Positions 35,497 to 51,977 of a stretch of DNA of 64,000 nucleotides are shown here, piece by piece (the first letter of the stretch is position 1; each line of letters begins with the position of its first letter). Location: positions 4,712,001 to 4,776,000 of the forward strand of contig NZ_CP046600.1 in NCBI RefSeq assembly GCF_018278905.1, written 5' to 3'. Source of the stretch: Mycobacterium spongiae (GTDB lineage: Bacteria; Actinomycetota; Actinomycetes; Mycobacteriales; Mycobacteriaceae). The translations under genes and the position numbers were made by a program. Under the pieces are notes generated by a model. It had not been told where the DNA came from. It did no database searches and worked only from the letters and a program-made list of their open reading frames with translations.

Positions 35497-38400
35497 GTGT
35501 CGTTTGTTTCGGTAACCCCGGAGGCGATCGCAGCCGCCGTCGGCGAGCTGGCAAGCATCGGTTCGACGCTCGATGCTGCCAACTCCGCAGCGGCCGCCGC
35601 GACGACCGAGCTTGTGGCCGCGGGCGCCGACGAGGTGTCCGCGCGCATTGCGGCCTTGTTCGGCATATACGGCCAGGAGTATCAGGCGGTCAGTGCGCAG
35701 GTAGCGACGTATCACGAGCAGTTCATTGCGGCGTTGCAGGGTGGCGCCGGTGCGTATGGGTGGGCTGAGGCCACCAACGCCGACCAGGTGGTGCTCAACG
35801 CGATCAACGGGCCGTTTCAGACGTTGTTGGGGCGCCCGCTGATCGGCGATGGGGCTAATGCGACGACTCCGGGTGGGGCTGGCGGAGACGGCGGGTTGCT
35901 GTACGGCAGTGGCGGTAATGGTGCTGCCGGCGGGCCAGGGCAGGCCGGTGGGGCTGGTGGGTCTGCGGGGTTGTTGGGCAACGGCGGTAATGGCGGCGCT
36001 GGCGGGATCGGTGCTGCCAGCGGTGGGGCCGGCGGCAATGGCGGCTGGCTCTACGGTCGTGGCGGCAACGGTGGGGCCGGCGGGATCGGCGGTGGTACCG
36101 GCGGTAGCGGCGGGCACGCGTGGCTGTTGGGCCATGGCGGGGTAGGCGGCTCCGGTGGCACTGGCGGTGCCGGCGGAGGCACCGGCGGCGCCGGCGGACA
36201 CAGCGGGTTGCTGTACGGCAATGGTGGTGCTGGTGGGGCCGGCGACACCGGCCAGTCTGGCGGAACCGGCGGTTCATCGCGGCTGTGGGGCCGTGGCGGT
36301 GATGGCGGGGCCGGTGGTGACGGCGGTGGCTTCGCTGGCGGTGACGGCGGCCGCGGAGGCCTGCTATTCGGCGAGGGCGGAACCGGTGGTGTTGGCGGCG
36401 GTGACGGCGGCAACGCGGGATGGCTGTTCGGTCATGGCGGCGCTGGCGGAGCTGGCGGTGCCGGTGGTTTCGACGGCGGCGCCGGCGGCAATGGTGGGTG
36501 GTTGTTCGGCAGCGGTGGTGCCGGCGGGGCCGGCGGCACGGGCGGCGGCGCCGGTGGTATCGGAGGCAGCGGTGGCCTGCTGTTCGGTGATGGCGGCGCC
36601 GGCGGTAGCGGCGGCAGCGGCGGCGGGGCCGGTGGTTCCGGCGGAAGCAGCGGCCTCGTGATTGGCGCCGGTGGGGCCGGCGGCGTCGGCGGCACCGGTG
36701 GCGGTACGGGCGGCAATGGTGGTCAAGCCGCGCAGTTGTTCGGATTTGGCGGCGCCGGCGGCGCTGGCGGCATCGGCGATCCTGGCAACGCCGGGGGCGA
36801 TGGCGGCGCCGGGGGCAACCCAGGGTGGCTGTTCGGCACCGGCGGCGCCGGCGGTGCCGGAGGCGCGGGTGGCACTGCGACCAGCATCGGTACCGCTGGC
36901 GGTGATGGCGGCGCTGGCGGCGCAGGCGCGCGTGGCGGGCTATTCATGCGCGGCGGTGATGGCGGGGCCGGCGGGGCCGGCGGCGCGGGTAAGGCGGGCA
37001 GCGACGGCATCGGGGACGGCGGCTCCGGTGGTGACGGCGGCGCAGGCGGCAGCGGCGGCGATGGCGGGGCCGGGGGTCGCGCCGCGTTGTTGTTCGGCCC
37101 GGGCGGCGCAGGCGGAGCCGGCGGTATCGGCGGCACCGGCGGGGCCGGGGGCTTGGGCGCCGACAGCCTCACCGGAATCGGCGGCGACGGTGGTGCAGGC
37201 GGCACTGGCGGCGATGCCGGGCAAGCCGGCACCGCGGGCGCCCGCCACCTCTTCAGCCAGGCCGGCTCTGCGGGAACCGCCGGTATTGGCGGTGACGGCG
37301 GCGACGGCGGGCATGGTGGTGGTGGCGCCGATGGCGCTGACGCTGTGGCCTCCGGCGCTACGGGTGATGCTGGCTTTGCCGGTGGTGCCGGCGGTGTCGG
37401 CGGAGATGGTGGCGGCTCCGGTGCCTTCCAGGGTGTCGGCGGTGCGGGTGGCGACGGCGGCACCGGCGGGATCGGTGGTGCTGGGGGTGCCGGCACCGAT
37501 AACAGCGCCAACGACGGCGTCGCGGGCGGGGCCGGCGGTAAAGGCGGCGTCGGCGGCACCGGCGGCGACGCCGGCCTCGGCGGCACCGGCTCGGTCGCCG
37601 GCACCGACGGCAGCGCGGGTGATGGTGGCACCGGCGGTATCGGTGGCACCGGCGGTGCCGGTGGTGCGGGCACCGTGGGTGCTGCCGATGGCGGCGACGG
37701 CGGCCAGGGCGCGGCCGGCGGTGCCGGCGGCACCGGCGGCGCCGGCGGGGCGACCGGCCTCGGTGCCGGCGGCACCCAGGGTGTCGGTGGCGCGGGCGGC
37801 GACGGCGGCACCGGCGGCCAAGGCGGTGCTGGGGGTGCCGGCACCGATAACAGCGCCAACGACGGCGTCGCGGGCGGGGCCGGCGGTAAAGGCGGCGTCG
37901 GCGGCACCGGCGGCGACGCCGGCCTCGGCGGCACCGGCTCGGCGGCGGGTGTTGATGGGTCGGCGGGTGATGGTGGCACCGGCGGTATCGGTGGCACCGG
38001 CGGTGCCGGTGGTGCGGGCACCGTGGGTGCTGCCGATGGCGGCGACGGCGGCCAGGGCGCGGCCGGCGGTGCCGGCGGCACCGGCGGCGCCGGCGGGGCG
38101 ACCGGCCTCGGTGCCGGCGGCACCCAGGGTGTCGGCGGCGCGGGCGGCGACGGCGGCACCGGCGGCCAAGGCGGTGCTGGGGGTGCCGGCACCGATAACA
38201 GCGCCAACGACGGCGTCGCGGGCGGGGCCGGCGGTAAAGGCGGCGTCGGCGGCACCGGCGGCGACGCCGGCCTCGGCGGCACCGGCTCGGTCGCCGGCAC
38301 CGACGGCAGCGCGGGTGATGGTGGCACCGGCGGTATCGGTGGCACCGGCGGTGCCGGTGGTGCGGGCACCGTGGGTGCTGCCGATGGCGGCGACGGCGGC

Positions 38401-50400: not shown

Positions 50401-51977
50401 GTAAAGGCGGCGTCGGCGGCACCGGCGGCGACGCCGGCCTCGGCGGCACCGGCTCGGTCGCCGGCACCGACGGCAGCGCGGGTGATGGTGGCACCGGCGG
50501 TGCGGGTGGCACCGGCGGTGCCGGTGGTGCGGGCACCGTGGGTGCTGCCGATGGCGGCGACGGCGGCCAGGGCGCGGCCGGCGGTGCCGGCGGCACCGGC
50601 GGCGCCGGCGGGGCGACCGGCCTCGGTGCCGGCGGCACCCAGGGTGCCGGCGGCGCGGGCGGCGACGGCGGCACCGGCGGCCAAGGCGGCACCGGCGGTG
50701 CCGGCACCGATAACAGCGCCAACGACGGCGTCGCGGGCGGGGCCGGCGGTAAAGGCGGCGTCGGCGGCACCGGCGGCGACGCCGGCCTCGGCGGCACCGG
50801 CTCGGTCGCCGGCACCGACGGCAGCGCGGGTGATGGCGGCACCGGCGGCCAAGGCGGCACCGGCGGCGACGGCGGCACCGGCAAAGCCGGCGCGGCCGGC
50901 AAGGGCAACGGCGGCGACGGCGGCGACGGCGGTCAAGGCGCGGCCGGCGGCGCCGGCGGCGACGGCGGTAAAGGCGGCGCCGCCGGTGTGGGCATGGGCG
51001 GCACCCAAGGCGTCGGCGGCCAAGGCGGCACCGGCGGCGACGGCGGCACCGGCGGCGACGGCGGCGATGGCAGCAACGGCAAGGGCATCACTGCGAAGGC
51101 GGGGGGTGACGGCGGCACAGGCGGCCAGGGCGGTACCGGCGGCGCGGCCGGCCAAGGCGGCAGCGGCTCTACCGCGGGCGCGATCGGTACCGGCGGCACC
51201 GGCGGCGAAGGCGGGATCGGAGGCGATGGCGGCAAGGGCGGCCACGGCCCGACCAGCAACGCCCCCGGCGGCGTCGGCGGAGCCGGCGGCGATGGTGGGA
51301 CCGGCGGAACCGGCGGCGCCGGCGACGGCACCAACGGTGGCGGAACCGGCGGCAAAGGCGGCGCGGCCGGCGACGGCGGCACCGGAGGCGATGGCGGCGA
51401 GATCGGCGGCCCCGGCGGCACCGGAGGCGCGGCCGGCACCGGCGGCACCGGCGGCACCGGCGGCAGCGGCGGCGGCGACGGCGGCGAGGGTGGTATCGGC
51501 GGCGACGGCGGCAAGGGCGGCATCGGCGACCCCCGGGTTGGTGGTTCAGGCGGTGACGGCGGCGACGGCGGCATGGGCGGTGCGGCCGGTGCCGGCGGTG
51601 CGGGCGGCAACGCGGGTGCTGGCGGCAACGGTGACGGCGGTGACGGCGGCAAGGGCGGCACCGGTGGCACTGGCGGCGAAGGTGGCGAAGCCGAACCCGG
51701 AGTGCCTATCGCGTCCGGCGGCACCGGCGGCGACGGCGCCGTCGGCGGTAAAGGCGGCGCGGGCGGCACCGGCACCGGAGCCGGCTCCGGCGGGACCGGC
51801 GGCGCCGGCGGCGACGGCGGCGACGGCGGTAAAGGCGGCGCCGGCTGGACTGGTGACCCCGGTGACCCCGGCAGCAGTGGTGGCTCGGGAGGCAGCGGCA
51901 CGAGCGGCGTCGGCACCACCGGTGGCGACGGCGGCACCGGCGGCACCGCCGGCACCGGCGGCGCCGGCGGCCTCTGA
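35497..51977 (+). CDS. Giant PE_PGRS locus, interrupted by ten small frame-breaking deletions
   Basis: GTG 35497 (after AGGAG) opens MSFVSVTPEAIAAAVGELAS, a PE domain to about residue 95, followed by the linker motif LLGRPLIGDGANA. PGRS sequence fills the rest to TGA 51975-51977, with no C-terminal globular domain. Codons 646 onward are a tandem array of a 116-residue unit. The first frame runs to about 40512. Ten sites totalling 13 missing bases, between 40512 and 46171, shift the frame; from about 46171 a single frame is open to the end. If the deletions are consensus errors, the product is about 5,497 residues, far longer than the PE_PGRS proteins I know from M. tuberculosis. Otherwise this is a 1,872-residue truncated protein plus a dead 3' part. 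The expected location is the cell surface via ESX-5. Minus-strand open frames across it are shadows. Confidence 0.85.
37432..50850 (+). repeat. Tandem array of a 348-bp (116-codon) unit, 39 starts
   Basis: The anchor ACCGATAACAGCGCC recurs at 37495, 37843, 38191, 38539, 38887, 39235, 39583, 39931, 40279, 40626, 40974, 41321, 41669, 42015, 42363, 42710, 43058, 43405, 43751, 44097, 44445, 44793, 45139, 45487, 45835, 46182, 46530, then every 348 bp to 50706. Spacing is exactly 348 except where one or two bases are missing. Units are nearly identical. They differ at a few cassettes: GSVAGTDGSAGDG or GSAAGVDGSAGDG, TQGVGG or TQGAGG, GGIGG/GGQGG/GGAGG, and GGTGG or GGAGG. The last unit is partial and grades into irregular PGRS. 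Confidence 0.95.

What the first reader, a model, noticed from the sequence alone, without database searches (positions are those of the whole stretch)
37432..50850. Thirty-nine near-identical 116-residue PGRS units in one gene
The array has an exact 348-bp period over 13.4 kb. If intact, the gene encodes about 5,500 residues. PGRS regions are normally irregular; this one has a large, precise higher-order repeat, implying recent expansion by unequal crossing-over and possibly a periodic surface fibre.
Basis: seen in the sequence. Interest (0 to 1): 0.8.

Follow-up and report, generated by a model that had tools for sequence, protein, structure and literature searches.

The report
Recurrent 116-residue PE_PGRS repeat module
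A sponge mycobacterium has a giant surface-protein gene built from about 38 copies of one 116-residue glycine-rich module, and the same module is stacked in several other giant genes of this and related mycobacteria, so it looks like a recurrent building block rather than a one-off.

Summary
The array is real. 38 full units fill 37429-50639 and a degraded 39th follows; 30 of 38 are exactly 348 bp, with mean identity 97.9% to their majority. It is the body of a PE_PGRS gene (35497-51977) in a genome whose length equals that of Mycobacterium spongiae FSD4b-SM. Two parts of the reading change. First, the frame is not open as assembled: 10 frame switches, all at least 3.0 kb from the array edges. 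This looks more like uncorrected long-read error than decay, unproven. Second, the unit is not unique. In-phase homologues of 114-120 residues form arrays in 9 further places of this genome (up to 57 units) and in 17 of 396 sampled Mycobacterium genomes, own included; one is on a M. riyadhense plasmid. Several frames over such arrays are open for 3,956-5,808 codons. Within the array, alleles more than about 25 bp apart are unlinked, which argues against one recent expansion. Its units (20 checked) lack F, W, Y, C, P and R and are acidic; the stretches scanned match no Pfam or NCBIfam model. Unit 1 is modelled as a polyglycine-II bundle. Best reading: an acidic polyglycine-II ribbon displayed outside the cell.

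The parts
35486..35499 (+). AGGAG ribosome-binding-like site (35486-35490) and GTG start (35497-35499) of the PE_PGRS gene
   Evidence: read in sequence; translation begins MSFVSVTPEAIAAAVG
35506..35778 (+). PE domain
   Evidence: Pfam PF00934, 108.7 bits, residues 14-104 of the ORF starting 35467
35830..35844 (+). GRPLI motif at the PE/PGRS junction
   Evidence: residues 112-116; R113, P114, L115 invariant among 26 aligned PE proteins
35845..37428 (+). N-terminal classical, irregular PGRS with aromatic/hydrophobic residues (23 F/W/Y)
   Evidence: Pfam PF21526 PGRS at 35842-36051; composition
37429..50639 (+). array of 38 units of about 348 bp (116 residues); no F/W/Y/C/P/R in the 20 units checked; no Pfam/NCBIfam match in the two stretches scanned (37429-39864 and 46464-51977)
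40213..46463 (+). units 9-26, holding the 9 units with altered length or paired gaps and the 10 frame switches
50640..50999 (+). degraded 39th unit (84% to unit consensus)
51000..51977 (+). C-terminal irregular Gly-rich tail, ending in TGA 51975-51977
34476..35126 (+). LuxR-type response regulator immediately upstream (flank)
   Evidence: Pfam PF00072 and PF00196
52061..53458 (-). sensor histidine kinase, convergent with the PE_PGRS gene (flank); its neighbour is this response regulator in relatives
   Evidence: Pfam PF02518; synteny

Best explanation
The array is the body of a giant PE_PGRS protein of M. spongiae. Its 116-residue unit is one member of a mycobacterial module family (114-120 residues): tracts of GGX triplets separated by four loops, landmarks in the window's type G-T-D-N-S-A-N, G-S-x-x-G-x-x-G-x-A-G-D, G-A-A-x-G-G-x-G-G-Q-G-A-A and A-T-G-x-G-A-G-G-T-Q-G. 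Shown here: the homology, its recurrence in several genes and species, coding constraint on the reading frame, absence of aromatic residues in the units checked, near-free reassortment of alleles between units. Inferred: (1) each module folds as a small polyglycine-II bundle and successive modules stack into a ribbon; (2) the PE domain directs export (ESX-5 in known relatives), the aromatic N-terminal PGRS anchors in the outer membrane as proposed for PGRS 'sails', and the acidic, aromatic-free array (8 D and 1 K per unit) projects as a hydrophilic brush or stalk whose length is set by copy number; (3) continual short-tract recombination between units keeps them alike; (4) the frame switches are mostly assembly errors.
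Confidence: 0.6

Rival explanations
1. Decaying pseudogene: the frame switches are real, and recombination between units has spread some of them, so only a product of about 1,860 residues, ending at the stop at 41085, is made.
For: Ten frame switches in a finished genome; length changes recur at the same few unit positions in different units, as spreading by conversion would give; the source paper counts 134 predicted pseudogenes.
Against: The switches lie at least 3.0 kb from the array edges and none was found in the adjoining unique parts of the gene; clustering in units 9-26 has P 0.003 under random placement; switches in arrays A2 and A3 of the same assembly also lie 2.0-7.9 kb from an edge, while arrays of near-identical units (A5, A7) have none (A8, with one switch 0.25 kb from an edge, does not fit). 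Variants show a purifying pattern. Assembly was PacBio RSII/HGAP3 corrected with 150-bp Illumina reads, which can hardly be placed uniquely in such repeats; in a HiFi re-sequencing of M. tuberculosis Erdman 145 of 198 variants that point to errors of the old assembly were in pe_pgrs genes (PMC12817950, passages).
Confidence: 0.22
2. Copy number and order are assembly constructs: the array exists but its 38 units and mosaic order are partly made by off-register overlap of noisy reads.
For: Units differ by about 3% while raw RSII reads err far more (recalled); array 13.2 kb versus an 8-kb size cut-off; middle units 9-26 keep slightly more linkage at 101-200 bp (r2 0.13 against 0.06 expected).
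Against: Edge units 1-8 and 27-38, nearest the unique flanks, also show no linkage beyond 50 bp; the more diverged 57-unit array A2 and arrays in independent assemblies of other species show comparable lengths and declining linkage.
Confidence: 0.3
3. Recent expansion by a few unequal crossing-over events from one unit peculiar to this gene.
For: 97.9% mean identity; adjacent units slightly more alike than random (P 0.01); paralogue A5 has 30 units at about 100%, which does look recent.
Against: 36 of 38 units distinct at DNA level; r2 at the independence level beyond 25 bp, four-gamete fraction 0.82-0.97; homologous arrays elsewhere.
Confidence: 0.1
4. Calcium-binding beta-roll of RTX type, as proposed for some PGRS domains.
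For: Each of 20 units scanned holds GGAGTDNSA, close to the nonapeptide GGXGXD/NXUX discussed for PGRS (PMC8430768, passages); units are Asp-rich.
Against: 0 strict nonapeptides in 20 units scanned (1 in 526 residues of the N-terminal PGRS); the model of unit 1 has next to no strand and resembles PGII bundles.
Confidence: 0.06

Closest known systems
PE_PGRS family, polyglycine-II 'sail' model (PE_PGRS33, Wag22)
   Same: PE domain, GRPLI, Gly-rich GGX triplets; fold model of unit 1 agrees with a PGII bundle (PMC10216338 and PMC9436101, passages)
   Different: The published PGRS carry a hydrophobic/aromatic edge; here 38 near-identical 116-residue modules without any F/W/Y in the 20 units checked, and PF21526 matched only the N-terminal part
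Module-array genes of M. riyadhense plasmid Mriy_45176_p1 (WP_341343647.1), M. basiliense and M. gordonae
   Same: Homologous module in tandem: 27, at least 25 and 30 units in the stretches segmented; PE by annotation in M. riyadhense and by PF00934 in the same 5,409-aa frame in M. basiliense; PE not tested for M. gordonae
   Different: Period 345, 360 and 357 bp; 64-72% module identity to the window's
Snow flea and springtail antifreeze proteins (2PNE, 7JJV)
   Same: Polyglycine/polyproline-II helical bundle superposing on modelled unit 1
   Different: Small animal ice-binding proteins; nothing here indicates ice binding
RTX calcium-binding repeats
   Same: GGxGxD-like loops in the unit
   Different: Strict nonapeptide absent in 20 of 20 units scanned

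Membership tests
PE_PGRS | N-terminal PE domain | tested here: met
   PF00934, 108.7 bits, cut-off 22
PE_PGRS | GRPLI motif between PE and PGRS | tested here: met
   residues 112-116
PE_PGRS | Gly-rich GGX PGRS domain | tested here: met
   PF21526 in the N-terminal part; G 53% in array units. The array stretches scanned have no Pfam hit
PE_PGRS | hydrophobic edge ('sail foot') of the PGRS | tested here: inconclusive
   Composition proxy only: 4.4% F/W/Y in the N-terminal PGRS, 0.0% in the 20 units checked; no reliable model of the whole
PE_PGRS | export by ESX-5 and surface location | not testable with these tools
   reported for the family in the cited papers, not for this gene
116-residue PGRS module family (defined here) | in-phase loops and GGX tracts shared with other arrays | tested here: met
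   15 other representative modules aligned, 63-88% identity to the window's; profile 40-79 bits versus at most 30 in 22 other PGRS loci. The 40-bit line was set by me after seeing the scores
Polyglycine-II bundle | superposition on a solved PGII protein | tested here: inconclusive
RTX / calcium beta-roll | GGXGXD/NXUX nonapeptides | tested here: not met
   0 in 20 array units
Functional (uninterrupted) gene | single open frame from PE to stop | tested here: not met
   10 frame switches as assembled; cause undecided

The most novel reading that the evidence does not exclude
Slow-growing mycobacteria share a discrete, mobile 114-120-residue polyglycine-II building block that is copied between PE genes (also on a plasmid), stacked to 5-57 copies and kept alike by very short-tract recombination, giving copy-number-tuned, aromatic-poor, acidic surface ribbons of up to perhaps 8,800 residues: a class of length-variable bacterial surface fibre separate from the membrane-lying PGRS 'sails'.
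Probability: 0.33. Interest if true: 0.72.

Novelty: new variant of a known kind. Interest (0 to 1): 0.5.

Why it matters
PGRS domains are usually treated as irregular low-complexity sequence. A fixed module that recurs in phase across genes and species gives a unit that can be expressed, solved and counted, and a strain-typing handle (copy number). It offers a sequence reason for the high-molecular-weight PE_PGRS bands reported in M. spongiae, and it flags a class of gene where finished genomes may carry false frameshifts. If the PGII ribbon reading holds, it separates two PGRS jobs in one protein: membrane anchoring by the aromatic part and outward extension by the modular part.

Tried and rejected
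Tried without result: single-sequence structure prediction of 4 units (pLDDT 30); protein database search with 4 units (2 hits that look compositional, among 7,999 scored candidates); genome-contig scan by protein (594 pattern stretches, none confirmed by tblastn); viral structure library (0 matches); PDB sequence search (25 sequences, nearly all collagens, which I take as Gly composition); align_proteins on modules alone (tool failure). In the VIA list a family that is absent is not thereby excluded.

Considered and rejected: antisense genes. Minus-strand ORFs up to 3,163 aa span much of the array, but third-position variation and Gly constraint fit the plus-strand frame. Chance or low complexity: excluded by codon shuffles. 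M. basiliense as the source: its genome is 5,607,630 bp, equal to G160's contig, not the window's.

Against my reading: frame broken; unit 2 and 3 models poor; E-values of fold matches weak; copy number unverified; non-synonymous changes at Gly codons in 6 of 7 other arrays. The 'module period' in other own-genome long PE loci holds for 6 of 11 fetched stretches with lag identity 0.7 or more (chance 0.117 each, P 7e-4), but 5 of 11 have other periods, one of the six (L045) is in a stretch of about 60% GC that is not PGRS-like, another (L040) is itself a module array, and 9 of the 20 stretches showed no lag at that level; the 20 were picked for long open frames, not at random. I give this survey little weight.
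Full report
WHERE IT IS. 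The window is positions 4,712,001-4,776,000 of a single-contig genome of 5,581,157 bp. That length is the published length of the M. spongiae FSD4b-SM chromosome (PMC11361433, passages), a slow-growing sponge isolate close to the M. tuberculosis complex. I take the source to be that strain; the identification rests on exact length and on the PE-rich content (150 PF00934 matches among 150 scored of 213 candidates; the paper counts 179 PE genes).

THE OBSERVATION. TRF finds 38.7 copies of a 348-bp unit at 37428-50866. Segmentation gives 38 full units (37429-50639) and a degraded 39th. 30 of 38 are exactly 348 bp; mean identity to the majority is 97.9% (93.7-100%); lag-348 identity is 0.807 against at most 0.396 in 200 codon shuffles. 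The gene starts at GTG 35497 behind AGGAG. It carries a PE domain, GRPLI, about 1.6 kb of classical PGRS (PF21526), the array, and a Gly-rich tail ending at TGA 51975-51977.

THE FRAME. As assembled the gene is not open: the Gly-rich reading switches frame 10 times inside the array and not in the adjoining unique parts. Nine units (9, 11, 13, 15, 18, 19, 21, 22, 26) show length change or paired gaps; nine random units would fall within 18 consecutive positions with P 0.003. The switches are at least 3.0 kb from either edge. In the same genome, array A2 has 2 switches 7.3-7.9 kb from an edge, A3 has 3 at 2.0-4.2 kb, A8 has 2 (one 0.25 kb from the edge of an irregular array, which does not fit the pattern), and A4, A5, A6a, A6b, A7 and L040 have none; of four arrays of other genomes, one (M. 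gordonae, L030) has 2 and three have none. The assembly was PacBio RSII with HGAP3 and Quiver, corrected with 150-bp Illumina reads, which can hardly be placed uniquely deep in such an array. I judge assembly error more likely than decay, but recurrence of the same altered unit positions is also what conversion of a real frameshift would give.

NOT UNIQUE. A DNA search with one unit in the same genome lists, in a list cut short by the tool, arrays at 764.6-784.5 kb (mostly 82-89% identity), 182-190 kb, 3,386-3,388 kb, 3,395-3,407 kb and 1,414 kb. Segmented: A2 57 units, A3 24, A4 10, A5 31 (30 at about 100%), two genes in L016 with 5 and 6, A7 22 and A8 15 at 354 bp, and L040 at 348 bp. These nine places each follow a PF00934 hit. 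A second own-genome search with a 354-bp-type unit added no new place. A profile built from 16 modules scores 40-79 bits on modules (a line I set after seeing the scores) and at most 30 bits on 22 other PGRS loci, 15 of which gave no reported hit; 217 modules pass 40 bits in the own-genome stretches with the window counted, 75.5 kb or 1.35% of the genome.

OTHER SPECIES. With the window unit, 25 of 198 genus genomes (own included) match at E 1e-3; nine others reach 39 bits or more, the rest are at 32.5 bits or less, the level of ordinary PGRS. With a M. gordonae-type unit 17 of 396 genomes (own included) match at E 1e-8. Named cases: M. basiliense 901379 (at least 25 units of 360 bp, with PE in the same 5,409-aa frame; contig length equals the published genome); M. 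gordonae DSM 44160 and CTRI 14-8773 and a Mycobacterium MAG (of 16 stretches with the loop pattern 10 were mycobacterial and 6 were in unrelated genera; 8 of the 10 and none of the 6 carry modules at 40 bits); and M. riyadhense DSM 45176 plasmid NZ_OY970457.1, where 27 units of 345 bp lie in an annotated 13,281-bp PE family CDS. Contig lengths also point to M. shinjukuense (G104) and M. saskatchewanense (G194). Open frames of 3,956 to 5,808 codons over such arrays show that giant uninterrupted versions exist.

ANATOMY OF THE MODULE. The 16 aligned modules share GGX tracts and four loops in the same order; length varies from 114 to 120 residues by small insertions and deletions in loops; identity of the other 15 to the window's module is 63-88%, and 34-75% at columns where neither residue is glycine. 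In the 20 units checked (1-8 and 27-38) there is no F, W, Y, C, P or R, and there are 8 Asp and 1 Lys per unit, whereas the N-terminal PGRS has 4.4% F/W/Y; modules of other arrays have 0-2.2% F/W/Y. Neither Pfam nor NCBIfam recognises the two array stretches scanned.

CONSTRAINT. 25 of 37 variable sites are at codon position 3; 24 synonymous and 17 non-synonymous variant types overall. In the 29 gap-free units all 17 variants at Gly codons are synonymous and the per-site ratio of non-synonymous to synonymous variants is 0.29; seven other arrays give 0.36-0.64, and six of those seven do have non-synonymous variants at Gly codons (4-58). So the reading frame has been under selection during the life of the array.

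RECOMBINATION. Thirty-six of 38 aligned units are distinct. r2 between variable sites is 0.79 within 5 bp, 0.48 at 13-24 bp and 0.01-0.03 beyond 25 bp, equal to the value expected for independent sites (0.027). The 20 edge units alone show the same beyond 50 bp (0.02-0.04, expected 0.053); the 18 middle units keep a little more at 101-200 bp (0.13, expected 0.059). A cassette of 12 substitutions in 20 bp occurs, whole or nearly so, in 12 scattered units. The array is therefore a mosaic scrambled at fine scale; one or a few block duplications would not give this. Array A2 (down to 0.04, expected 0.019) and the M. gordonae array (0.05, expected 0.045) also lose linkage with distance, while G006 and M. 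basiliense keep more (0.14) and show multi-unit super-periods, so the balance of processes differs between arrays.

LOCUS HISTORY. In relatives G006 and G015 the response-regulator stop and the end of the histidine-kinase alignment are convergent and about 26 and 23 bp apart, with no PE_PGRS between them (PE-like hits lie about 3 and 4 kb away from the pair); here the same pair flanks the 16.5-kb gene. In G010 the gap is about 0.55 kb, and in G007 and G001 only a head-to-head kinase was found. The convergent kinase copies in G006 and G015 each contain a stop. The gene was thus gained here or lost there.

HOW IT MOST LIKELY WORKS. See Best explanation. The published model roots PGRS in the mycomembrane by a hydrophobic edge and keeps the negative faces upright. 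The module lacks such residues, so I infer that the N-terminal part anchors and the array projects. The paper on this strain reports abundant PE_PGRS by antibody, also in culture filtrate, at higher molecular weights than in M. tuberculosis; this fits giant products but does not identify this gene.

LITERATURE. Searches for tandem or higher-order repeats, modules, gene conversion and structure of PE_PGRS (8-15 papers listed each) listed no paper whose title or abstract start describes this module; a 2025 review of PE_PGRS evolution has no occurrence of 'tandem', 'repeat unit' or 'periodic' (PMC11939664, term search only), and the M. spongiae paper none of 'tandem repeat'.

VERDICT. A real, striking array, best filed as a new variant of a known kind (PE_PGRS). 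The interest lies in the recurrent module rather than in this one gene.

Noticed in passing
L011/L012, genome 786347 to 759951 (-), outside the window: A second, larger PE_PGRS array gene: 57 units, about 26 kb, open stretches of 3,032 and 5,585 codons with the interruption near array units 21-23; potentially about 8,800 codons.
   Followed up: partly
window 34476-35126 and 52061-53458: The PE_PGRS gene separates a response regulator from a histidine kinase that are convergent neighbours in two relatives.
   Followed up: partly
window 37429-50639, unit columns 167-186: A block of 12 substitutions in 20 bp shared by 12 scattered units changes few residues and swaps two serine codon types; it looks like an import from a diverged copy (residue reading by eye).
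   Followed up: partly
L022/L072, NZ_OY970457.1 50294-63574: The module array sits on a large M. riyadhense plasmid near transposase genes and is followed by another long PE gene at 64064-70021; a possible route of spread.
   Followed up: no
L036, L050, L031, L041 (own genome): Other PE loci carry tandem arrays with other periods (246, 603, 630, 1155 bp), L050 at up to 100% identity.
   Followed up: no
window 41417-50908 (-) and 36940-46161 (-): Minus-strand ORFs of 3,163 and 3,073 aa cross the array; probably by-products of about 83% GC repeats.
   Followed up: partly
window 11023-14103 (-): Another PE_PGRS gene in the window (PE domain 110.7 bits; PGRS model just under its cut-off).
   Followed up: no
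control lines: The PF00934 control search reports a match over the cut-off in the control named Escherichia coli, which is unexpected for a mycobacterial family.
   Followed up: no
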